A model generated the notes under the pieces. That model saw only the letters and a list, made by a program, of their open reading frames with translations, was not told the DNA's origin and did not search any database. The translations under genes were made by a program, and so were the position numbers. Below are positions 16,728-27,301 of a stretch of DNA of 64,000 nt, piece after piece (the first letter of the stretch is position 1; each line of letters opens with the position of its first letter). This stretch comes from Pandoraea apista (GTDB lineage: Bacteria > Pseudomonadota > Gammaproteobacteria > Burkholderiales > Burkholderiaceae): contig NZ_CP013481.2 in assembly GCF_001465595.2 (NCBI RefSeq), positions 2,108,001 to 2,172,000 on the forward strand, given 5' to 3'.

Positions 16728-17837
16728 TCAGACCGGCGCGGTACCGGCCGCAAACGCCACCGGATGCTGTACCGCAAGACGCAGCCCCACCCGTTCGCCT
16801 GCCTCGTGCGTCAACTCGCCGTCGACGCGCGCAATGACCTCCTGGCCCGACGCCAGGCGCAACGTGTAAAGCTGATCGGCGCCGCGGAACGCGCGCCGCA
16901 CCAGCGTGGCTTCGAACGGACTGGCGGGGTCATGCGCAATATCGTCTGCGCGCAGCAACACGTCGACGTTCACTGGATACGCGTCTTTCGCGGCGGTGCG
17001 CAGCAGCTTGTCGGCCAATGCCGGCGAGACGGCGATCTCCCCGAGTTCGATCGAGATGCCGCCGCCGTCGGCGTTGCCTCGGAACGTGCCCGGAATCAGC
17101 GCGCCGCGTCCGATGAAATCGGCGACCACGCGGTTGGCGGGCGTGCGCCACAACTCTCGGGCGGGCGACCACTGGGCGATCGCGCCCGCATGCATCACCC
17201 CGATGCGATCGGCCATCGCGAAGGCCTCATGTTGATCGTGCGTGACGAGAATCGCTGTCGCGCCGCTCGCCCGGATGATCTCGCGCACCTCCACGGCCAG
17301 CCGTTCGCGCAGATCGAGGTCGAGATTCGAGAATGGTTCGTCGAGCAGCAGCAGGGCAGGCGAAGGCGCCAGGGCGCGTGCAAGCGCCACGCGTTGCTGT
17401 TGACCCCCGGAGAGTTCGTGCGGGTATTGGCGCAAGGCGCCGGCCAGACCCACACGTTCGGCGAGGGTCGCCACCCGGTCCTCACGTTCGGCCCGGGTCA
17501 TGCGTCCGAGGCCAAAACCGATGTTCTGAGCGACATTCAGATGCGGGAACAACGCGTAATCCTGAAACACCACGCCCACATGACGTCGCTCCGGCGGTTC
17601 GCTCAATTGCGCGTTGGCGACCTCGTGACCGTCGAGCACGATACGTCCGCCGGAGAGCGGCTCGAAGCCGCACACGGCGCGCAACACCGTGGTCTTTCCG
17701 CAGCCGGACGGGCCAAGCAGACAACCGATCTCGCCGCGCGCGAGCGATAGCGTCAGGTCGCGAACGGCCGTGTGGAGGTGGCCGCCGGCGTCGTAATTCA
17801 CCGAGATGTGGTCGAGCAGCAGGTAAGGCAGGGGCAT
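16728..17837 (-). CDS. Iron(III)-type ABC transporter ATP-binding protein (FbpC-like)
   Basis: 369-residue ABC ATPase. Walker A is GPSGCGKTT, the Q-loop lies in [16 protein letters not shown], the signature is [15 protein letters not shown] and Walker B is [12 protein letters not shown]. After about residue 240 a TOBE-like C-terminal domain follows, as in FbpC/AfuC/PotA. It is divergent from a two-domain permease gene of Fbp type at 18135, so the pair probably forms one importer. No periplasmic binding protein is encoded nearby. Other Fe/sulfate/putrescine-class substrates cannot be excluded. Confidence 0.82.
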
Positions 17838-18134
17838 CGGTTCGGGAGGGCGTGTGTCGACGCAGGTGCGTCAACGAAAGTGGATCGAAAAATCAGCTCG
17901 ACAGGCCGATCGACGCAAGCGATTCGGTGGGCTCTGCACGGCGGCAGGGCACTTTCTGCGGCGGGCCGCGTCAGAGATCCAATCGCGAATGCGTATAATT
18001 TACAACGCTTTAGACCGGCGAGCGTCTTCCGGTTCCCTGAGACGATGCAAGGCGCACGGCCGTCGGCCGTCATGGGCGTACTTTCCGCCACCTGATTGTC
18101 CCTCCCATTTACCGCTACCCATCACGATTTGCCG

Positions 18135-19949
18135 ATGTCATCGACGCCCCCGTCACGCGCCGCCAATGATTCTGTTTCCGTCGATGCCTTGTCCCGGCTG
18201 GGCGATCCGGCTGAGGGCCTGATCACGTCCCCCGCACAGGCTGGCACTGCGCAGACGCAGCCCCTCGGCCGTCGTTCGTCGGTGCCCGACCGTGAAGTCG
18301 GCTACGCCGGCCGGCGCCCACGGGCAGGCCGGCTTTCCCGTGCGTGGGCGTGGCGACTGGTGGCGTGGCTGCCTGCATTGGTCGTGCTCGTGCCGATGTT
18401 CGGCATCGTAGCGGCGTTGGGAACGGGAGACGCGCAGACGCGCGCCATCCTCGTTCATATGCTCGACACGGTGCTGCCCGAATACGCCCTCAACTCACTA
18501 CGCATCTCGCTGGCAGTCAGCGCTGGCGTCGTTGTGATGGGGGTGGCAAGTGCCTGGCTGGTTGTGCACTATGCGTTTCCGGGACGACGTCTGCTCGAGT
18601 GGGCGTTGATCCTGCCGCTCGCGATGCCTGCCTATGTGACCGCCTACGCGTACACCGACTTCCTCCAGTTCGCCGGGCCCGTGCAGAGCGCACTGCGCCA
18701 GTGGCTCGCCGTTGATCGTGTGGTGTGGTTTCCGGAGATTCGCTCGTGGTACGGCGCGGCATGGGTGTTCGCCGGCGCCTTCTATCCGTATGTCTATCTG
18801 CTGGCCCGCACGGCGTTTCTCGAGCACAGCCAGCGCTTCTTCGAGGCGGCGCGCACGCTCGGCTGCACGCCCTTGCAGGCGTTCATGCGTGTGGCCTTGC
18901 CGCTGGCGCGACCGGCGCTGGTCGCGGGCGTGGCGCTCGTGCTCATGGAGACACTTGCCGATTATGGGGCCGTCGCTTACTTCGGCGTGCCGACATTTAC
19001 AACCGGCATTTACCGCGCGTGGTTGTCTATGGGGGATCGGGTCGCCGCCGCACAACTCTCCGCATGTCTGCTGTTTGCCGTTCTTTTCCTGCTGATCGCG
19101 GAGGCACGCAGCAGGGCGCGGCTGCGGTATTACGGGACACCGGGACGTGCGCCGACGATCTCGCGGCGCACCCGCCTGCGAGGCGCGCGCGCAGCGTTGG
19201 CGACGCTCGCATGTGCGCTGCCGCTCATCGCCGGCTTCGTGCTGCCCGCACTGGTCATGCTGCGACTGGCCGTCTCGGAACTGGATCAGGTGCCTTGGCC
19301 CCGCTATGGCGAATGGGTCTACAACACCGTGCGTCTGGCGGCCGTGGCGGCGCTTGTCGCGAGTGCCTTCGCCATTGTGCTTGGCTATGCGCAGCGTCTG
19401 GCGCCGGGACGTGTGACGCGCGTTGCTACCCGGCTGGTAGGGGTGGGCTACGCGATTCCCGGCGCCGTCATTGCCCTGGGCATTCTCACGCCGGTGTTGT
19501 TTCTCGACACCTGGCTGGGCAACGTGTTTGGGGCCAGGGGGCTGGTGCTTGCCGGCACGGGCGGCGTCCTGATCTATGCCTACGTCGTACGATTCCTGCC
19601 GGCGGCGCTGCAAAGTGTGGATGCCGGCTTCGCGCGCATCGCGCCGAATCTCGATGCCAGCGCCCGCAGCCTGGGCGTGGGCGGCTGGTCGATGTTGCGC
19701 CGGGTGCATTTGCCGTTGCTGCGCGGCAGCGTGCTGACGGCCGCGCTGCTGGTGTTCGTCGACGTGATGAAAGAACTGCCCGCCACGCTCGCGTTGCGCC
19801 CGTTCAATATGGATACGCTGGCGGTTGTCACCAGCCACCTGGCGGCCGACGAGCGCCTCGCCGAGGCCGCCGTGCCCGCCCTGACGCTGGTGCTCGTGGG
19901 CTTGCTGCCCGTGCTGGTACTTGCGCGCGCCATTGCGCGACGGGCCTGA
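18135..19949 (+). CDS. Iron(III)-type ABC transporter permease (FbpB-like, two fused permease domains)
   Basis: 604-residue permease with about 12 membrane helices in two halves, each with a binding-protein-dependent permease signature: EAARTLGCTPLQAFMRVALPLARPA in the first half, and SARSLGVGGWSMLRRVHLPLLRGS in the second. This duplicated layout is typical of FbpB. An N-terminal extension of about 70 polar residues precedes the first helix. The ATG at 18135 was preferred over an in-frame TTG at 18096; neither has a good ribosome-binding site. A TATAAT box at 17994-17999 could serve it. Its ATPase partner is divergent at 17837. Confidence 0.83.
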   Translation: MSSTPPSRAANDSVSVDALSRLGDPAEGLITSPAQAGTAQTQPLGRRSSVPDREVGYAGRRPRAGRLSRAWAWRLVAWLPALVVLVPMFGIVAALGTGDAQTRAILVHMLDTVLPEYALNSLRISLAVSAGVVVMGVASAWLVVHYAFPGRRLLEWALILPLAMPAYVTAYAYTDFLQFAGPVQSALRQWLAVDRVVWFPEIRSWYGAAWVFAGAFYPYVYLLARTAFLEHSQRFFEAARTLGCTPLQAFMRVALPLARPALVAGVALVLMETLADYGAVAYFGVPTFTTGIYRAWLSMGDRVAAAQLSACLLFAVLFLLIAEARSRARLRYYGTPGRAPTISRRTRLRGARAALATLACALPLIAGFVLPALVMLRLAVSELDQVPWPRYGEWVYNTVRLAAVAALVASAFAIVLGYAQRLAPGRVTRVATRLVGVGYAIPGAVIALGILTPVLFLDTWLGNVFGARGLVLAGTGGVLIYAYVVRFLPAALQSVDAGFARIAPNLDASARSLGVGGWSMLRRVHLPLLRGSVLTAALLVFVDVMKELPATLALRPFNMDTLAVVTSHLAADERLAEAAVPALTLVLVGLLPVLVLARAIARRA

Positions 19950-20474: not shown

Positions 20475-21398
20475 ATGGCGCTATGGCGGATCGATCTTGT
20501 CTCGCTGCGACTGTTTGTCGCCGTTTGCGAAGAAAGCAGTATTGCCCGTGCCGCCGAGCGCGAATTCATTGCGCCCTCGGCTGTCAGCAAGCGCATCAAC
20601 GACCTCGAGTCACTCGTGGGGTCGGCGCTTCTCCAGCGCCACAAATGGGGCGTTCGGGCCACTCCGGCAGGCGAAGCCCTGTTGCATCACGCGCGCAACG
20701 TCTTGCGCAGTCTCGAGAAGATGCAGGGCGATTTGTCTGAGTACACCAGTGGTGTGCGCGGGCACATTCGTATCTTCGCCAATGTTTCCTCGATCGTCGA
20801 AACCTTGCCCGATGAACTGGGCGCGTTCCTGCGCCGCCATGAAGGGGTGAAGGTCGACCTCGAAGAGCACACCAGTGCACAGGTGGTGCGTGGCGTGGCC
20901 GACGGTGCGACCGACATCGGTATTTGCTGGGATGCGGTCGACACCCGCGACGTCGAAGTCTTTCCCTACCGTCACGACCAGATCGTGACCGTGCTGCACC
21001 GTGAACACCCGTTGGCGTGCGCGGAGCAACTCGCGTTCGTCGAAACGCTCGACTTCGATCAGGTCGGTGTGCATCCGGACAGCGCCATGTATACCGTGCT
21101 GCGGCGTCTGGCCGCCGAGCAGGGCAAGACTGTCAAATTCCGCATCCATGTCTCGACCTTCGAAGCGGTTTGCCGCATGGTGCGCGCGAACCTTGGGTTG
21201 GCGATCGCGCCGCGCGAGGCGGTCGGCATCTATTCGCAGGTGACGGACGGAGAGGCGCTGCGCATTGTGCCGCTGACCGATCCGTGGGCGCAGCGGCGTC
21301 TGATTGTGTGCGTGCGCCGGTACGATGCCCTGCCGGTGGCGTCGCGCATGCTGGTCGACCATTTGTGTGCACGTAACGTAACAGAGGGTAACGCCTGA
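20475..21398 (+). CDS. LysR-type transcriptional regulator of the catabolic cluster
   Basis: 307 residues. The N-terminal winged helix-turn-helix is clear (residues about 6-65: LRLFVAVCEESSIARAAEREF, APSAVSKRINDLESLVGSALL). It is followed by a periplasmic-binding-like effector domain. The ATG at 20475 has GGGAG six bases upstream. Unusually for LysR systems it is not divergent from its likely targets; it heads the same-strand series binding protein, hydratase, CoA-transferase, racemase. The inducer is unknown but is probably the acid handled by this cluster. Confidence 0.88.
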   Translation: MALWRIDLVSLRLFVAVCEESSIARAAEREFIAPSAVSKRINDLESLVGSALLQRHKWGVRATPAGEALLHHARNVLRSLEKMQGDLSEYTSGVRGHIRIFANVSSIVETLPDELGAFLRRHEGVKVDLEEHTSAQVVRGVADGATDIGICWDAVDTRDVEVFPYRHDQIVTVLHREHPLACAEQLAFVETLDFDQVGVHPDSAMYTVLRRLAAEQGKTVKFRIHVSTFEAVCRMVRANLGLAIAPREAVGIYSQVTDGEALRIVPLTDPWAQRRLIVCVRRYDALPVASRMLVDHLCARNVTEGNA

Positions 21399-21559
21399 TG
21401 CGTGGCGCGGTGGCAAGCATCGTGATCGACGATGTCTGGCATGCCGAAACACAACTTGCCGAGGCATCGGGGGCGGCGGATGCTTTGTGGGCCGATAGCG
21501 ATTCCGGCCGGCGAGCCGGAGCGCGCCTGTGTCCCGCATCGTGCGGGAGGAGACACGCG

Positions 21560-22636
21560 ATGACACATGTCGAAGCGCGCCGTGTGCGCGATGCCGTAGG
21601 ACGCCTGATTTTCGTGCTCATCTTGATTGCGCTGGGCCTCGTGGCGTTGAGCCTGAGCGCCGGGGCGTCTGCGGCTGCCGCTCAGCCGCTCGAAAAGCCG
21701 AAGATCACCATTGCCGTAGGCGGAAAACCCGGTCTTTATTACCTGCCGCTGACCATCGCCGAACAACTGGGCTACTTCAAGGATGAAGGTCTAGATGTCA
21801 CTATCGACGATTTCGCGGGGGGCTCGAAAGCGTTGCAGGCCGTGGTCGGCGGCAGCGCGGATGTGGGCACCGGCGCTTTCGAACATACGTTGCTGATGCA
21901 GACCAAGGGGCTGACCTATCAGGCGTTCGCCGTGCTGGGCGCCGCACCGCAACTGGTACTCGGCGTGGTGAAGGCCAAGGCCGGTGAGGTCAGATCGGTC
22001 AAGGACCTGAAAGGGATGCGGATCGGTGTCAGTGCACCGGGATCGAGTACGCACATGCTGGTGAACGTGGCGCTTGCGAAGGTCGGGCTCAAACCGTCCG
22101 ATGTCTCGATTGTCGGTGTCGGCAGCAACGCAACGGTGGTCGCTGCCGCCCGTGGCGGACAAGTCGACGCCGTCTCCAACGTCGATCCGATGATGACGCT
22201 GTTGCAGGAGTCGGGCGATCTCAAGGTACTTGTCGATACCCGTACGCAGGCCGGCACTCGCGCCATGTTCGGCGGCCCGATGCCCGCGGCTGTCATGTAT
22301 GCACCGCAAAGTTTCATTCAGAAGAACCCACGGACTGTGCAGGCGTTAGCCAATGCCATCGTGCGGGCGGACAAATGGCTCCAGCGCGCCTCTGCCGCCG
22401 ACCTCCTGAAAACCGTGCCGGAAGCCTATCTGCTGGGGGACAAGACGCTTTATCTGAAGGCATTCGCCAACTGTCGCGAGGCGTTTTCGCCGGACGGCAT
22501 GATGCCCCCCGATGGCCCCGCCACCGCGCTCAAGGCGCTCGCGTCGTTCACCCCCGAAGTCAAGCCGTCGCAGATCCGGCTTGGCGACACGTGGACCAAC
22601 ACGTTTGCGATACAGGCAAATCGGCAGTACCCCTGA
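21560..22636 (+). CDS. NMT1/SsuA-type periplasmic substrate-binding protein (orphan)
   Basis: 358 residues. The start at 21560 is supported by GGGAGGAG upstream. A signal sequence with a hydrophobic core (LIFVLILIALGLVALSL) ends near ASAAAAQ. The mature part, KITIAVGGKPGLYYLPLTIAEQLGYFKDEGLDV, is typical of the family binding sulfonates, nitrate, taurine and pyrimidines. DVGTGAFEHTLLMQTKG and MRIGVSAPGSSTHMLV fit the same fold. No permease or ATPase gene accompanies it, so it either works with a distant transporter or acts as a sensor or scavenger. Its place between LysR and the hydratase suggests it binds the substrate of the cluster. Confidence 0.82.
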   Translation: MTHVEARRVRDAVGRLIFVLILIALGLVALSLSAGASAAAAQPLEKPKITIAVGGKPGLYYLPLTIAEQLGYFKDEGLDVTIDDFAGGSKALQAVVGGSADVGTGAFEHTLLMQTKGLTYQAFAVLGAAPQLVLGVVKAKAGEVRSVKDLKGMRIGVSAPGSSTHMLVNVALAKVGLKPSDVSIVGVGSNATVVAAARGGQVDAVSNVDPMMTLLQESGDLKVLVDTRTQAGTRAMFGGPMPAAVMYAPQSFIQKNPRTVQALANAIVRADKWLQRASAADLLKTVPEAYLLGDKTLYLKAFANCREAFSPDGMMPPDGPATALKALASFTPEVKPSQIRLGDTWTNTFAIQANRQYP

Positions 22637-22764
22637 GCATCTGCTGACAAACGCGTGTTTGGACGTCATGACCTCACATTCCCCACCTTGCCGCGCGAGC
22701 GTTCGGCACGGAACTTGCGATCAAAACGGGTGAACCCATGCGGGAACATTCGAGGAGCGATCTT

Positions 22765-24792
22765 ATGCAAGCCACCGTGCGACTGAACGGACGTGTGCTG
22801 TGGTTGAGCGACCGTGCCGAAGTCATGACCCGTCAACTGGCGGGCGAGTCCCTGACGCGGGCCGAAGCCGGGCCTCTGCGCGACCAGATTTCCACCGACG
22901 AGATGACGCCCGCGTGGGCGTGCCTGGCGTTCGACGAAACGCTGGGCGACTACGTTTATGTCGGATTGCGATGCAGCGAAGACTCGGCTGACCCCGCCGG
23001 GGTGTTTCCCGTCAGGCCGAAGGCGGTACGTGAGGGGGGCTTTGCACTCTCGGTCGCGGGCCTGCGCCGGGGCAAGGGGTCGTCGCGAGAGGCCAGTCCG
23101 TTTGCCGAATGGTGCGCGGGAATTCGCGTGGTGATTGCCGAGAGTTTCGAGCGTATCTACGCGCAGAACTGTCAGAACCTCGGGCTCTTGATGTCGACCG
23201 ACCTGACGCTTGCGGAGCGCTTGCAGGCGGGAGAGGCGGTACCGATCGAAGCCTTTCTCGAAGATTGCGATTCGTTGGGCGAGGCGATCGTGCGCAGCGG
23301 CGGGCTGTTCGGCTATACGCGACGGCGGCTGGCGGGCGATACCGTGCCGCCGCGTCCCGCCCACCCGCCGGGCGCGATGACCTACGGCGAAAAGCTGATT
23401 GCGAAGGCGCTTGGCGTTGCGCGCGTGCGAGCGGGAGACGCGGTGTTCGTGCCCGCCGACTGGCGTTTCTCCCACGAATATGTGACGCCGATGGCCGTGA
23501 GTTTCCTTCGGCATGCCTTTGGCAACGCTGTGCCGGCGTTGCACGATCCGGAGTCGATGCTGTGCTTCGAGGACCACCTGACCCATCTCGACGCGGTTTC
23601 CGCCGACGGCAGCCGCCCGCCGCCGCTGGTGGATGCGGCGAGACGCTTGGGGGCGGTGCAGCGGGAATTCTGCGCGCAGTACGATCTGCGCCTTCACGGG
23701 CGTGCGCCCGGCGGCGGCTCGGAAGGCATCTGCCACGCGCTGATGCTTGAGCGCTACGCACTGCCGGGGCAGGTGATTGTGGGAACCGATTCGCACACCC
23801 CGCATTGCGGTGCTGTCGGTGCGTTTGCGTTCGGCGTCGGTGCGACGGAAATGGCGAACGCCTGGCTCACGGGCGACGCACGTCTGGCCGTACCCGGCAC
23901 CTGCCTCATTCATTTGCGCTCGCGTTTGCCGGCGGGGGTCGGGGCGAAGGATCTGGCGTTGCATCTGCTGCATCTGCCGTATATTCGCGACGGCCGCGCG
24001 ATCGGCCAGATCATCGAATTTTCCGGCGAGGCGGTGGCGCACCTGTCGACCGACGAGCGCGCCACGCTTACCAATATGGTCGCCGAGATCGGCGGGCTGA
24101 CCGGACTGATCGTGCCCGACGCCGAGACCGTCCGTTATCTGCGCGAGCGGCGTGGCATCGACTTCGCGTTGGCCCCGTGGATGACGAGCGATGCGCAGGC
24201 GTCATATGCCCATGTGATCGAGATCGATTGCGCGTGTCTCGGGGCAATGGTGGCGAGTCCCGGAGATCCCGGCAACGGTCTGGCGCTCGCCGATCTGAGG
24301 GCGTCGGTGCCGATCGACATTGCGTATGGCGGGTCGTGTACGGGCAGCAAGCGCGACGATTTGCGTGCCTGCCACGACGTACTCGCGTGGGGGCTGTCGC
24401 GGGGGCACCGTGTGGCCGAAGGCGTGCGCTTCTACCTGCAGTACGGCAGCGAAGATGTGCGCGCGTGGTGCGAGAGACAGGGTTACACCGAGGTATTCAG
24501 GGCGGCGGGCGTGACGATGCTCTCGCCCGGGTGCGGCGCATGCGTGAATGCCGGGCCGGGCGTGTCTCGCGCGCCGGGTGAGGTGGTCATCAGCGCGCAG
24601 AACCGTAATTTTCCCGGACGCTCCGGTCCGGGACAGATGTGGCTGGGAAGTCCGGCCACCGTGGCGGCGAGTGCCTTGGCGGGGTACATCGTCGGCTTCG
24701 ATCAACTACAACGCGACGGATTCGTTTCGCAGGCCGTGAGCACGCCGGGCCGGTCGTGCAGCGAAGCGTCGCGGGCAGGTTCGGGGGGGTAG
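22765..24792 (+). CDS. Aconitase/isopropylmalate isomerase family hydratase with N-terminal swivel domain
   Basis: 675 residues. Residues ~35-190 resemble the small (LeuD-like) swivel domain, with the GKGSSRE loop near residue 105. Residues ~205-650 resemble the large (LeuC-like) subunit: TDSHT at 341-345, first cluster Cys C525 in GGSCTGSK, the other two C590 and C593 in PGCGAC, and the active-site-like NRNFPGR near 613. All three [4Fe-4S] cysteines are present, but the usual SCTN reads SCTG. The swivel comes first, unlike LeuC-LeuD fusions and AcnA. The ATG at 22765 has GAGGAG upstream. The gene ends 3 bp before a CoA-transferase gene. It probably hydrates or isomerises a di- or tricarboxylic acid; the substrate is unknown. 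Confidence 0.85.
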   Translation: MQATVRLNGRVLWLSDRAEVMTRQLAGESLTRAEAGPLRDQISTDEMTPAWACLAFDETLGDYVYVGLRCSEDSADPAGVFPVRPKAVREGGFALSVAGLRRGKGSSREASPFAEWCAGIRVVIAESFERIYAQNCQNLGLLMSTDLTLAERLQAGEAVPIEAFLEDCDSLGEAIVRSGGLFGYTRRRLAGDTVPPRPAHPPGAMTYGEKLIAKALGVARVRAGDAVFVPADWRFSHEYVTPMAVSFLRHAFGNAVPALHDPESMLCFEDHLTHLDAVSADGSRPPPLVDAARRLGAVQREFCAQYDLRLHGRAPGGGSEGICHALMLERYALPGQVIVGTDSHTPHCGAVGAFAFGVGATEMANAWLTGDARLAVPGTCLIHLRSRLPAGVGAKDLALHLLHLPYIRDGRAIGQIIEFSGEAVAHLSTDERATLTNMVAEIGGLTGLIVPDAETVRYLRERRGIDFALAPWMTSDAQASYAHVIEIDCACLGAMVASPGDPGNGLALADLRASVPIDIAYGGSCTGSKRDDLRACHDVLAWGLSRGHRVAEGVRFYLQYGSEDVRAWCERQGYTEVFRAAGVTMLSPGCGACVNAGPGVSRAPGEVVISAQNRNFPGRSGPGQMWLGSPATVAASALAGYIVGFDQLQRDGFVSQAVSTPGRSCSEASRAGSGG

Positions 24793-24795
24793 CAG

Positions 24796-26079
24796 ATGCC
24801 GGATGAATCTCCTGCGGCGCCGACGCCGTTGCAAGGCATTCGCGTCGTGGAGTTTTCCCATATGGTCATGGGCCCCATGTGCGGCATGGTGCTTGGCGAT
24901 CTCGGTGCCGACGTCATCAAGGTGGAGCCGGTAGGGGGCGACGCAACGCGGCGTTTGCTGGGCACCGGGGCGGGCTTCTTCCGCACATTCAATCGCAACA
25001 AGCGCAGCCTCGCCGTGGATGTTACGCGGCCCGAAGGGCGCGAACTGATTTTGCGTCTGGTGAGCAAGGCCGACGTGGTGACCGAGAACTTCAAGCCGGG
25101 GCGAATGCGTCAGATCGGGTTGGACTATGCGACGTTGTCGCGGTTGAACCCGGCGCTTGTCTACGTCTCGCTCAAAGGCTTCTTGCCGGGACCGTACGCC
25201 GCACGCACGGCGCTCGACGAGGTCGTGCAGATGATGGCGGGGCTGGCCTATATGACGGGGCCGGTCGGGCAGCCATTGCGTGCAGGCACGTCGGTCAACG
25301 ACATCATGGGCGGTGTGTTCGGCGCACTCGCTGCCATCGCGGCGTTGTACGAGCGCAAGACGACCGGACGGGGACAGGAAGTGCAGGGTGCCCTGTTCGA
25401 GAACTGTGTGTTGCTCGCGGCGCAGCACATGCAGCAGTACGCGGTGACCGGCGTGGCGCCCGACCCGATGCCTGCGCGCGTGTCGGCCTGGGGCATTTAT
25501 GACGTGTTCACGGCGCGCGATGGCGTGCAGATCTTTCTCGCCGTCGTGAGCGATACCCAGTGGCGGATTTTCTGCGACGTGTTCGGTCGCCACGATCTGG
25601 CCGACGACGCCCGGCTCGCGACGAACAATGACCGGGTTCTGGCCCGTGACTGGCTGTTGCCTCTGCTGCGCGAGATGATGCAAGGGTTCGACGCCGGTTA
25701 TCTGGCGGCAGCGTTCGAGCGTCACGGTCTGCCGTTCGCGCCGATCGTCACGCCACAGGCGTTGTTCGACGATCCGCATTTGCTCGCCAGCGGCGGATTG
25801 GGCGACCTGGTGACTGAGAACAGTGAGCACACGCAGGTGCCGTTGCTGCCGATCACCCTGGCGGGGCAGCGTTTGCCCGCGCGTTTGCCGTTGCCGGCGG
25901 TGGGGGAGAATACACATGAAATCCTGCGCGATCTGGGATATCTCGATGCCCAGATCTCCCGTCTGGTGACGGAGGGGGTGGTGGCCGGTCCGGCGGACGA
26001 ACCTCATACGGACGCTACCTCGGATGTCGGCGATCCCGCCAACGCCGTTATGTGGGAAGACGGCACCCGCCGCGGCTGA
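24796..26079 (+). CDS. Family III (CaiB/BaiF) CoA-transferase
   Basis: 427-residue protein of the formyl-CoA/succinyl-CoA transferase family. The N-terminus PLQGIRVVEFSHMVMGPMCGMVLGDLGADVIKVEP is canonical. The candidate catalytic aspartate, which forms the acyl-anhydride in this family, is D141 in ALDEVVQMMAGL. The block GRGQEVQGALFENCVLL also fits. The C-terminal ~40 residues are an unstructured extension. It starts 3 bp after the hydratase stop, so the two are co-translated. It probably activates a dicarboxylic acid by transfer of CoA from a donor such as succinyl-CoA; the substrate cannot be read from sequence. Confidence 0.87.
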   Translation: MPDESPAAPTPLQGIRVVEFSHMVMGPMCGMVLGDLGADVIKVEPVGGDATRRLLGTGAGFFRTFNRNKRSLAVDVTRPEGRELILRLVSKADVVTENFKPGRMRQIGLDYATLSRLNPALVYVSLKGFLPGPYAARTALDEVVQMMAGLAYMTGPVGQPLRAGTSVNDIMGGVFGALAAIAALYERKTTGRGQEVQGALFENCVLLAAQHMQQYAVTGVAPDPMPARVSAWGIYDVFTARDGVQIFLAVVSDTQWRIFCDVFGRHDLADDARLATNNDRVLARDWLLPLLREMMQGFDAGYLAAAFERHGLPFAPIVTPQALFDDPHLLASGGLGDLVTENSEHTQVPLLPITLAGQRLPARLPLPAVGENTHEILRDLGYLDAQISRLVTEGVVAGPADEPHTDATSDVGDPANAVMWEDGTRRG

Positions 26080-26191
26080 ATTCGGCGTTTTCCGAGAGAG
26101 GTAAGCGTGTTGTCTGCTTGCCGGCAGACGGCAGGGCGCGGTACGGTGTGGGCATCGCCCCTCACTCGTTTGCCGCCCACTACCGCCCACT

Positions 26192-27301
26192 ATGACCGAA
26201 CCGCTCGAACCGTCTCAGGCACGTGAATCGTCCGCCCAGTTTTCAGCCTCGGCGTCTTCCGGAGCGCCGGACACTCCCGACGCTCCGCTTGTTGGCGTCA
26301 CCGTTCTGGATCTCACACGTTTGTTACCCGGTCCGCTCGCGGGGCTTCGCCTCGCCGAATTGGGGGCACGCGTCATCAAGATCGAGGACAAGGGCGCCGG
26401 TGACTATGCCCGCGAGATGATGCTTGGTGAGAGCGAGGCGCCACCGAGCGCCTTCTGGCGTTTGCTCAATCGCGGCAAGGCGATCGAACGACTCGACCTC
26501 AAAGACGACACCGATCGCGCGACGTTTCGGGAATGGGTGTCTCGTGCCGACGTGTTGCTCGAGGGTTTCCGCCCCGGCGTGATGGCGCGACTTGGCTTCG
26601 ATTACGAGACACTGGCGCGTCTCCGGCCGTCGCTGGTGATGGCGTCGATTACGGGTTACGGACAGCATGGCCCAATGGCACACGCCGCGGGGCATGACAT
26701 CAACTACATCGGCTACGCCGGCGTGCTCGATCAGTTGGGTGACACGGCAGACGCACCGATCGTTCCGAACTTCCAGATCGGCGACTTGTACGGCGGCGGG
26801 CAGGCGACGGTGCAAGCCGTATTGGCGGCACTTGTCTCGGCACTGCGTACGGGGCGCGGCAGATGGCTCGATATCTCGATGACCCACGAGGTGTTTCGGG
26901 CGAATCTTATCCCTGCGGTCGCGTTGCATCGGCAGGGGCATGTATCGCGGGCGGGCACCGATTTGCTCAACGGGGGCGTGCCTTGCTATCAGGTCTATCG
27001 TACGCAGGATGGACGGCACATGGCCGTGGGGGCGCTTGAGCTCAAGTTCTGGCAAGCCTTGTGCGACGTGCTCGGGCGCAACGACTGGAAGTCGCGGCAC
27101 TGGTCACTTGGGCAAGTGATCGGCGGCGCCGATGCTCGTGCGCTTCAGGGCGAACTGGCCGCGGTGTTTGCGAGCGCGTCGCTGGCAGACTGGACGTTGC
27201 GTTTTGCCAATGCGGATTGCTGTGTCACTCCTGTGTTGCGTCTGGAGGAAGCCATGACGCACCCGCTGTTCGCTCAGACGCGCGGGTCGCTGACGCCGTG
27301 A
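26192..27301 (+). CDS. CaiB/BaiF family protein of alpha-methylacyl-CoA racemase type
   Basis: 369 residues with an N-terminal ~30-residue polar extension, then VGVTVLDLTRLLPGPLAGLRLAELGARVIKIE. The residues matching the racemase triad are present: H168 in AAGHDINY, D198 in QIGDLYGGG and E283 in GALELKF. Each lies 42 positions after H126, D156 and E241 of Mycobacterium tuberculosis Mcr, so the spacing is exactly kept. This points to 1,1-proton transfer on a 2-substituted acyl-CoA rather than CoA transfer. It follows the CoA-transferase gene by 112 bp on the same strand and is the last gene of the cluster. A CoA-transferase role cannot be excluded. Confidence 0.82.
   Translation: MTEPLEPSQARESSAQFSASASSGAPDTPDAPLVGVTVLDLTRLLPGPLAGLRLAELGARVIKIEDKGAGDYAREMMLGESEAPPSAFWRLLNRGKAIERLDLKDDTDRATFREWVSRADVLLEGFRPGVMARLGFDYETLARLRPSLVMASITGYGQHGPMAHAAGHDINYIGYAGVLDQLGDTADAPIVPNFQIGDLYGGGQATVQAVLAALVSALRTGRGRWLDISMTHEVFRANLIPAVALHRQGHVSRAGTDLLNGGVPCYQVYRTQDGRHMAVGALELKFWQALCDVLGRNDWKSRHWSLGQVIGGADARALQGELAAVFASASLADWTLRFANADCCVTPVLRLEEAMTHPLFAQTRGSLTP

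What the first reader, a model, noticed from the sequence alone, without database searches (positions are those of the whole stretch)
20475..27301. Accessory gene cluster for an unidentified branched dicarboxylate or tricarboxylate
A LysR regulator, an orphan binding protein, a fused-domain aconitase-family hydratase, a family III CoA-transferase and an alpha-methylacyl-CoA racemase-type protein lie in one orientation. The hydratase and CoA-transferase genes are 3 bp apart. Together they suggest uptake or sensing of an acid, hydration or isomerisation by an Fe-S enzyme, CoA activation, and stereocentre inversion at an alpha-methyl (or similar) carbon. C5 acids such as citramalate, mesaconate or methylmalate-type compounds would fit, but I know of no characterised pathway with this exact set.
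Basis: partly seen in the sequence, partly recalled or inferred. Interest (0 to 1): 0.72.

Follow-up and report, generated by a model that had tools for sequence, protein, structure and literature searches.

The report
LysR-controlled hydratase and CoA-transferase operon
A soil and opportunist bacterium carries a small switchable gene set that probably hydrates a branched four- or five-carbon acid and attaches coenzyme A to it, but only part of the proposed set hangs together in related bacteria and the actual food molecule remains unproven.

Summary

Supported: the hydratase (ACN) and CoA-transferase (COAT1) are adjacent in 29 of 29 same-genus genomes that have ACN, and linked again in Trinickia, Burkholderia and Paraburkholderia, there with an HMG-CoA-lyase-like gene, a transporter and a related LysR gene. 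COAT1 orthologues stand beside that lyase in 9 of 20 fetched loci of the order. A T-N11-A palindrome follows LysR in 16 of 16 aligned loci.

Not supported as one five-gene unit: the racemase-like gene (COAT2) occurs as a single match in 81 genomes of other genera, in housekeeping surroundings in the two read. The binding protein is missing from two basal genomes. ACN has decayed independently in two species while the other four genes stay under purifying selection.

ACN keeps the Fe-S hydro-lyase residues. Its specificity loop lacks the arginine recalled for tricarboxylate enzymes, which favours maleate- or citraconate-type acids.

Best reading: citraconate-type acid -> 2-hydroxy acid ((R)-citramalate type) -> CoA thioester -> lyase cleavage. 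No lyase is in the Pandoraea cluster. The substrate is inferred, not shown.

The parts
20475..21398 (+). LysR-family regulator of the operon
   Evidence: Pfam HTH_1 + LysR_substrate; 69-99% identical orthologue in the Pandoraea loci listed; 43-46% to the LysR genes divergent from HMGL-COAT1 in L027, L028, L029, L032, L154, L156
21417..21452 (.). Putative LysR operator and promoter footprint: T-N11-A palindrome (21419-21434) followed by GCATGCCGAAACA
   Evidence: TCG-N7-CGA and GCATGCCGAAACA present in 16 of 16 rows (window plus 15 chosen Pandoraea loci, P. terrae included); by eye a similar palindrome lies between LysR and ACN in basal locus L024; the long pattern occurs once in the genome at up to 3 mismatches
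21560..22636 (+). NMT1/SsuA-type periplasmic binding protein with a signal-peptide-like N-terminus (by eye), no permease beside it; lineage-specific addition
   Evidence: Pfam PF09084; not found between LysR and ACN in basal loci L024, L127
22765..24792 (+). Fused aconitase-superfamily hydro-lyase (ACN): N-terminal swivel (LeuD-like) domain then catalytic LeuC/HacA-like domains; start may be 22738
   Evidence: PF00694 at residues 106-151 then PF00330 at 233-649; Cys triad invariant, GSSRE and NRNFxGR invariant or nearly so in 54 aligned sequences
24796..26079 (+). Family III CoA-transferase (COAT1) with the Asp motif aligned; orthologue of HMG-CoA-lyase-linked transferases
   Evidence: PF02515 E 1.9e-108; alignments to CoA-transferases; orthologues beside HMGL in 9 of 20 fetched loci
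26192..27301 (+). Alpha-methylacyl-CoA-racemase-type family III protein (COAT2), loosely attached to this cluster
   Evidence: His, Asp and Glu aligned with the racemases; matches in 110 of 249 family genomes at E <= 1e-90, one per genome, 29 of them same-genus; surroundings in L162, L163

Best explanation
A LysR-controlled catabolic operon for a small branched cis-butenedioate or its hydrate, citraconate/(R)-citramalate type most likely. Step 1 (inferred from the conserved active-site residues): ACN adds water to the cis-unsaturated acid, or isomerises the hydroxy acid, with a [4Fe-4S] cluster. Step 2 (inferred from family and catalytic Asp): COAT1 moves CoA, probably from succinyl-CoA, onto the 2-hydroxy acid. 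Step 3 (inferred from relatives, not in this cluster): an HMG-CoA-lyase-like or CitE-like lyase splits the thioester, for citramalyl-CoA into acetyl-CoA and pyruvate. LysR, sensing the acid or a product, acts at the palindrome at about 21419 (site shown by conservation, binding inferred). The orphan binding protein is a lineage-specific addition for capture or sensing. COAT2 is a more general racemase-type enzyme that sits at the end and need not belong to the pathway. The hydratase is the optional entry step: in species that lost it, COAT1 still has work, presumably on the hydroxy acid taken up directly or made by the paralogous hydratase.
For: ACN-COAT1 adjacency in 29 of 29 same-genus genomes with ACN and linkage, with HMGL, MFS and a related LysR, in L027, L028, L029, L032 and L184. 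COAT1 orthologues beside HMGL in 9 of 20 fetched loci of the order. In L031 an ICL/PrpB-family lyase with hydantoinase A/B and an isochorismatase-type hydrolase stands beside MFS-ACN; in L085 an ICL-family gene, LysR, a distant CaiB (31%) and an ACN in two pieces. The hydratase thus recurrently sits with a C-C lyase. Cluster and substrate-binding residues kept. The loop after STDE(I/M)TP has no Arg at the aligned position recalled as decisive for tricarboxylates (5th residue after TP) in any row in which the motif was found, and such a loop is described as setting substrate preference in isopropylmalate isomerase and homoaconitase (PMC7308503, passages). EC 4.1.3.46 and EC 2.8.3.20 for (R)-citramalyl-CoA lyase and (R)-citramalate CoA-transferase (PMC8307300, passages). 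Operator footprint. Hydratase lost twice with the other genes under purifying selection.
Against: No lyase lies in the Pandoraea cluster. The genome's one clear HMGL (40% identical) stands elsewhere without a CoA-transferase beside it and scores as an ordinary HMG-CoA lyase. The substrate was not tested. HMGL plus CoA-transferase alone would also fit 3-hydroxy-3-methylglutarate; COAT1's best named family is succinate-glutarate CoA-transferase (270 bits, cut-off 750). 51 of 65 ACN loci searched with nine query proteins, mostly Acidobacteriota and some on short contigs, gave ACN alone. 11 of 20 fetched COAT1 loci show no HMGL beside it. The loop evidence is soft: one paralogue-group row (L122) has Arg one residue further on, several Pandoraea have Arg at the 2nd residue after TP, and the core-Pandoraea loop differs from that of relatives, so the substrate may have shifted.
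Confidence: 0.42

Rival explanations
1. Two overlapping modules. LysR-SBP-COAT1-COAT2 is the functional core and handles a carboxylic acid that needs no hydratase; ACN is a peripheral passenger that widens the range of acids.
For: G005 and G028 keep LysR, SBP, COAT1 and COAT2 in order with dN/dS 0.018-0.109 after independent decay of ACN with different remnants; in G020 ACN reads as two ORFs. COAT1 orthologues in the 20 loci have no ACN beside them.
Against: ACN is under purifying selection in the other species (dN/dS 0.047-0.19), is kept in 29 of 32 same-genus genomes, and stands with COAT1 again in other genera. A 52-54% identical paralogue remains in G005 and G028 and could replace it.
Confidence: 0.27
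2. Salvage of a larger 2-alkylmalate such as 2-/3-isopropylmalate: ACN isomerises, COAT1 activates, an HMGL-like lyase releases acetyl-CoA and a 2-oxo acid.
For: The catalytic domain is nearest to isopropylmalate/homoaconitate-type models and structures; the core-Pandoraea loop is more hydrophobic (CLAF against C(Y/F)HY); the HMGL-like protein of L032 also matches isopropylmalate synthases.
Against: Scores are far below the isopropylmalate dehydratase cut-offs; no leu-type gene in the cluster.
Confidence: 0.11
3. Maleate hydratase: maleate to D-malate.
For: In L031 the hydratase stands near an isochorismatase-type hydrolase and hydantoinase A/B, a set that could yield a cis-enedioate from a cyclic imide (chemistry inferred); a methanogen enzyme tied to leuC has maleate hydratase activity (PMC8307300, passage). 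The LysR-ACN-MFS paralogue stands with no further pathway gene evident.
Against: A CoA-transferase and a C-C lyase would not be needed for D-malate.
Confidence: 0.1
4. One reading: a beta-methylmalate-type route in which COAT2 inverts an alpha-methyl centre of the CoA ester before lyase cleavage.
For: COAT2 has the racemase His/Asp/Glu aligned and begins within 2 kb of the end of ACN in 28 of 29 same-genus genomes with ACN.
Against: COAT2 matches stand alone in genomes of other genera; none found in G015, which keeps ACN-COAT1 (E <= 1e-90); no COAT2 beside ACN-COAT1 in the five loci outside the genus.
Confidence: 0.08

Closest known systems
(R)-citramalate CoA-transferase + (R)-citramalyl-CoA lyase (EC 2.8.3.20 / 4.1.3.46), known from Chloroflexus
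   Same: CoA-transferase then lyase; the COAT1-HMGL pair of relatives matches it (that the Chloroflexus lyase is HMGL-type is recalled)
   Different: No lyase in the Pandoraea cluster; an Fe-S hydratase, LysR and binding protein are added; sequence kinship to the Chloroflexus proteins not tested here
Bacterial itaconate/methylsuccinate cluster (ict, ich, ccl, mcd, msi; PMC12290011, passages)
   Same: CoA activation of a branched C5 dicarboxylate, then lyase
Isopropylmalate isomerase / homoaconitase group
   Same: Conserved residues, nearest profiles and solved structures
   Different: Fused, swivel domain first; below the cut-offs of the 25 NCBIfam families shown; loop differs
AcnB and AcnX type I (domain order 4-1-2-3; PMC8184944, passages)
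   Same: Swivel domain at the N terminus of one chain
   Different: No HEAT-type hit in Pfam and far below the AcnB cut-offs; matches the classical Aconitase/Aconitase_C models
Alpha-methylacyl-CoA racemase (MCR, FAR)
   Same: COAT2 aligns over most of its length with His/Asp/Glu kept
   Different: Substrate unknown; no tie to the other genes seen outside the genus

Membership tests
Aconitase superfamily [4Fe-4S] hydro-lyase | Three cluster cysteines, GSSR and NRNFxGR motifs, catalytic plus swivel domain | tested here: met
   Pfam hits; cysteines invariant and the motifs invariant or nearly so over 54 sequences
Isopropylmalate isomerase, homoaconitase or aconitase (named subfamilies) | Score above the curated NCBIfam cut-off of a named family | tested here: not met
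   NF001614 308.9 against cut-off 385; LeuC, HacA, AcnA, AcnB, AcnD models among the 25 shown all below theirs
Tricarboxylate-specific member (aconitase, homoaconitase) | Arg in the swivel loop for the gamma-carboxylate (position recalled) | tested here: not met
   Not Arg at the aligned position (5th after TP) in the focal protein or the listed relatives with the motif; L122 has Arg at the 6th. The offset rests on the phmmer alignment to 1v7l and recall; no structure model
Family III CoA-transferase | CoA_transf_3 fold with catalytic Asp | tested here: met
   COAT1: PF02515 E 1.9e-108, Asp of SVND aligned; role of the residue recalled
Succinyl-CoA:(R)-citramalate CoA-transferase | Activity with (R)-citramalate, or close kinship to the Chloroflexus enzyme | not testable with these tools
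   No sequence of that enzyme was compared; no assay
Alpha-methylacyl-CoA racemase | His/Asp/Glu of the MCR active site (recalled) in a family III fold | tested here: met
   COAT2 alignments to 2g04, 8rmw, 1x74
HMGL-dependent citramalyl/HMG-CoA route | HMGL-type lyase encoded with the CoA-transferase | tested here: not met
   Absent from the window cluster; the one clear HMGL of the genome is distant; met in L027, L028, L029, L032, L184
Itaconate degradation cluster | Itaconyl-CoA hydratase and CitE-type lyase in the cluster | tested here: not met
   Neither is among the five genes; a 2HCT transporter-CaiB-CitE set lies elsewhere (L179)

The most novel reading that the evidence does not exclude
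An undescribed aerobic route for citraconate and (R)-citramalate in Burkholderiales: a fused swivel-first citraconase, a dedicated family III (R)-citramalate CoA-transferase and an HMGL-type (R)-citramalyl-CoA lyase under one LysR. It would fill the gap left by the itaconate cluster, which serves the (S) side, with Pandoraea as a variant whose lyase lies elsewhere.
Probability: 0.27. Interest if true: 0.6.

Novelty: new variant of a known kind. Interest (0 to 1): 0.42.

Why it matters
Itaconate, mesaconate and citraconate are described as antibacterial and immunomodulatory acids (PMC9875883, passages). The genetics of itaconate and (S)-citramalate breakdown is known, but P. putida carrying the itaconate cluster did not grow on (R)-citramalate or citraconate (same passages). 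If the ACN-COAT1-HMGL set is that route, the gap becomes testable with three enzymes. It would also name a group of fused aconitase-family enzymes, found here in Burkholderiales and Acidobacteriota, that sources-isopropylmalate dehydratase, 2,3-dimethylmalate dehydratase or only 'aconitase family protein'. The two independent hydratase losses are natural controls.

Tried and rejected
That ACN is the housekeeping aconitase of Holophagaceae, where its relatives stand alone: rejected, since the eight Geothrix genomes scanned hold further aconitase-family matches (5 to 8 match rows each, some of them pieces of one gene). That the upstream ABC transporter serves the binding protein: rejected, since permease and ATPase match Fe3+/2-AEP-type models and the ATPase is divergent. 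Promoter and terminator consensus scans gave no excess over shuffles (0 against 1.5, 4 against 6.1); an inverted-repeat scan gave one palindrome inside COAT2. RNA families and tRNAs: none in the window. The same operator pattern before operons of other genera: only partial or scattered matches. In the COAT1 tree several other CaiB rows from the window's genome were evidently cut in a wrong frame (branch length 10) and the root is a midpoint, so only relations inside the COAT1 family were used, and these forks have SH-aLRT 82-90. Gene picking for neighbourhoods was my own ORF heuristic; it missed HMGL in L028, L029 and L184, recovered by tblastn. Of the 20 COAT1 loci, L153 showed no COAT1 in that ORF set and L144 ends at COAT1; both count as misses. 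20 of the 57 matching genomes were fetched. In one search the COAT2 value for L023 is a match to COAT1 and was not used. The footprint alignment took 15 chosen loci plus the window, not every Pandoraea locus held. L164 was fetched but its surroundings were not read.

Literature: the listings show no title or abstract start on this gene set; two searches listed no paper. Only open-access text was searched, and only passages of six papers were seen.

Full report
Where it is. The window is G000:C1:2108001-2172000 of a 5.57 Mb genome of the genus Pandoraea, judged by the nearest named relative of the hydratase, P. bronchicola at 94%. Five genes lie on the + strand at the stated coordinates and carry the stated domains. 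The hydratase-to-transferase gap is 3 bp.

The hydratase. ACN is one chain with the swivel (LeuD-like) domain first and the LeuC/HacA-like catalytic part second. That order is known from AcnB, fungal IPMI and AcnX type I (PMC8184944, passages). The cluster cysteines are invariant, and GSSRE and NRNFxGR invariant or nearly so, over 54 aligned sequences, so it should be an active hydro-lyase. It scores below the cut-offs of the 25 NCBIfam families shown. The loop after STDE(I/M)TP (window 22912-22941) reads A(W/R)(A/V)CL(A/T/S)F in core Pandoraea, AWVCFHY in basal ones, AWACMHY in P. terrae, mostly A-x-(I/V)-C-(Y/F)-(H/Y)-(Y/F) in Trinickia, Burkholderia and Holophagaceae members, and VTVMLTY in the Pandoraea paralogue. 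None of the rows with the motif has Arg at the 5th residue, the position aligned with the one that I recall as decisive for tricarboxylate members (R26 of a methanogen homoaconitase, R580 of mitochondrial aconitase). L122, of the paralogue type, has Arg at the 6th, and several Pandoraea have Arg at the 2nd. Two rows lacked the motif. Such a loop is described as the substrate recognition region of isopropylmalate isomerases (PMC7308503, passages). This argues, softly, against tricarboxylates.

The two family III proteins. COAT1 aligns its SVND Asp with CoA-transferases. COAT2 aligns His, Asp and Glu with the alpha-methylacyl-CoA racemases. The catalytic roles of these residues are recalled.

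Conservation inside the genus. Thirty-two genomes of the genus, own included, were searched. ACN orthologues (69% or more) are in 29; missing are G003 (1.2 Mb), G005 and G028. COAT1 is next to ACN in all 29 (L001, L086-L113). COAT2 was found in 30 of 32: 29, plus G017 through L012, which I take to be the same contig by its coordinates; not in G003 or G015. It begins within 2 kb of the end of ACN in 28 of 29. The binding protein precedes ACN in 26 of 28 genomes where that side could be read; G023 and G025 lack it, and the contig of G029 ends there.

Natural experiments. G005 and G028 keep LysR, SBP, COAT1 and COAT2 in the same order without ACN. The gap holds remnants of different ACN parts (residues 621-676 in G005; 87-141 and 655-676 in G028), so these look like two independent losses. 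The other four genes remain under purifying selection there (dN/dS 0.018-0.088 and 0.047-0.109). In G020 ACN reads as two overlapping ORFs meeting at the swivel/catalytic border. G015 (P. terrae by its contig) keeps LysR-SBP-ACN-COAT1 but has an unrelated ORF where COAT2 would be, and no COAT2 match at E <= 1e-90, with 8 of 25 candidates scored. The hydratase and the racemase each appear dispensable to the rest.

COAT2 elsewhere. In a sample of 249 genomes of the family, 110 have a COAT2 match at E <= 1e-90, one each; 29 are same-genus and 81 are not. Ralstonia proteins are 61-64% identical. In the two surroundings read (L162 from G412, L163 from G504), it lies among Uup-like, RadA-like and alanine-racemase-like genes (names by eye) with no ACN or COAT1 there. 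It is not a mark of this pathway.

ACN and COAT1 beyond the genus. Of 366 other genomes of the family, 7 have an ACN at E <= 1e-225. With loci, the surroundings are: LysR | HMGL-COAT1-MFS-ACN in L027, L028, L029, L032 and L184; hydantoinase A/B - isochorismatase-type - ICL/PrpB-family - MFS-ACN in L031; LysR | ACN in L182; ACN beside a Bug-type binding protein (by eye) in L183 and L185. The five HMGL loci may not all be independent: L184 closely resembles L028. COAT1 orthologues were searched in 300 genomes of the order: 57, own included, matched at E <= 1e-110. Twenty loci were fetched and 9 have HMGL beside COAT1; two of these also carry a LysR 42-44% identical to the window's. In the tree, HMGL-linked members lie both outside and inside the group that holds the Pandoraea branch (support 82-90, midpoint root), so the link may be old. 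The HMGL-like protein of L032 (Burkholderia territorii) scores 261 bits against a family cut-off of 246, while the Pandoraea genome's own HMGL scores 499 and stands elsewhere.

Regulation. The LysR-SBP gap holds a stretch conserved in 16 of 16 rows aligned (window plus 15 chosen loci): TCG-N7-CGA, a T-N11-A palindrome (21419-21434), and after it GCATGCCGAAACA. In basal L024 a similar palindrome, read by eye, lies between LysR and ACN. The longer pattern occurs once in the genome. In the window the short pattern occurs once against 0.36 expected, so the case rests on conservation. The binding-protein gene thus sits between operator and ACN in the species that have it.

What it does. Aconitase-type enzymes act on cis-enedioates and their 2-hydroxy acids (established chemistry, recalled). 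An HMGL-type lyase acts on a 3-hydroxy-3-substituted acyl-CoA (recalled). An acid that fits both and carries no third carboxylate is (R)-citramalate, made from citraconate. EC 2.8.3.20 and 4.1.3.46 name the two CoA steps (PMC8307300, passages). In Pandoraea the lyase must come from elsewhere, the HMGL at 5.09 Mb or the CitE next to a 2HCT transporter and CaiB at 2.94 Mb, or the pathway differs. The substrate remains inferred.

Verdict. The biochemistry is familiar; the combination was not met in the listings of the open-access searches made.

Noticed in passing
G000:C1:1797892-1799862 (L115): A paralogue of ACN (55%) forms LysR-ACN-MFS; similar sets occur in L119, L120, L122, L125 and L130.
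   Followed up: partly
G000:C1:3682000-3700000 (L116): Second hydratase cluster with CaiB, an ICL/PrpB-family-like gene, hydantoinase A/B-like genes, a two-subunit LeuC/LeuD-type hydratase and Liv-like ABC ATPases; homologues of the hydantoinase and ICL genes recur beside ACN in Trinickia mobilis (L031).
   Followed up: partly
G000:C1:2936724-2940191 (L179:5725-9192): 2-hydroxycarboxylate transporter - CaiB - CitE-type lyase in a row, a candidate second CoA-dependent hydroxy-acid route.
   Followed up: partly
window 16728-19949: Fused two-domain ABC permease and a divergent ATPase matching Fe3+/2-aminoethylphosphonate-type models best.
   Followed up: no
G020:C1:3540676-3542744: ACN reads as two overlapping ORFs meeting at the swivel/catalytic border; subunit split or decay not distinguished.
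   Followed up: no
L033, L034, L047, L057, L080: In some Holophagaceae/Acidobacteria loci the ACN relative follows a gene that looks by eye like LarC (nickel-pincer cofactor maturation); not tested by profile.
   Followed up: no
window 22912-22941 (ACN swivel loop): Core Pandoraea have CL(A/T/S)F where basal species, P. terrae and other genera have C(Y/F/M)(H/Y)(Y/F), a possible substrate shift.
   Followed up: partly
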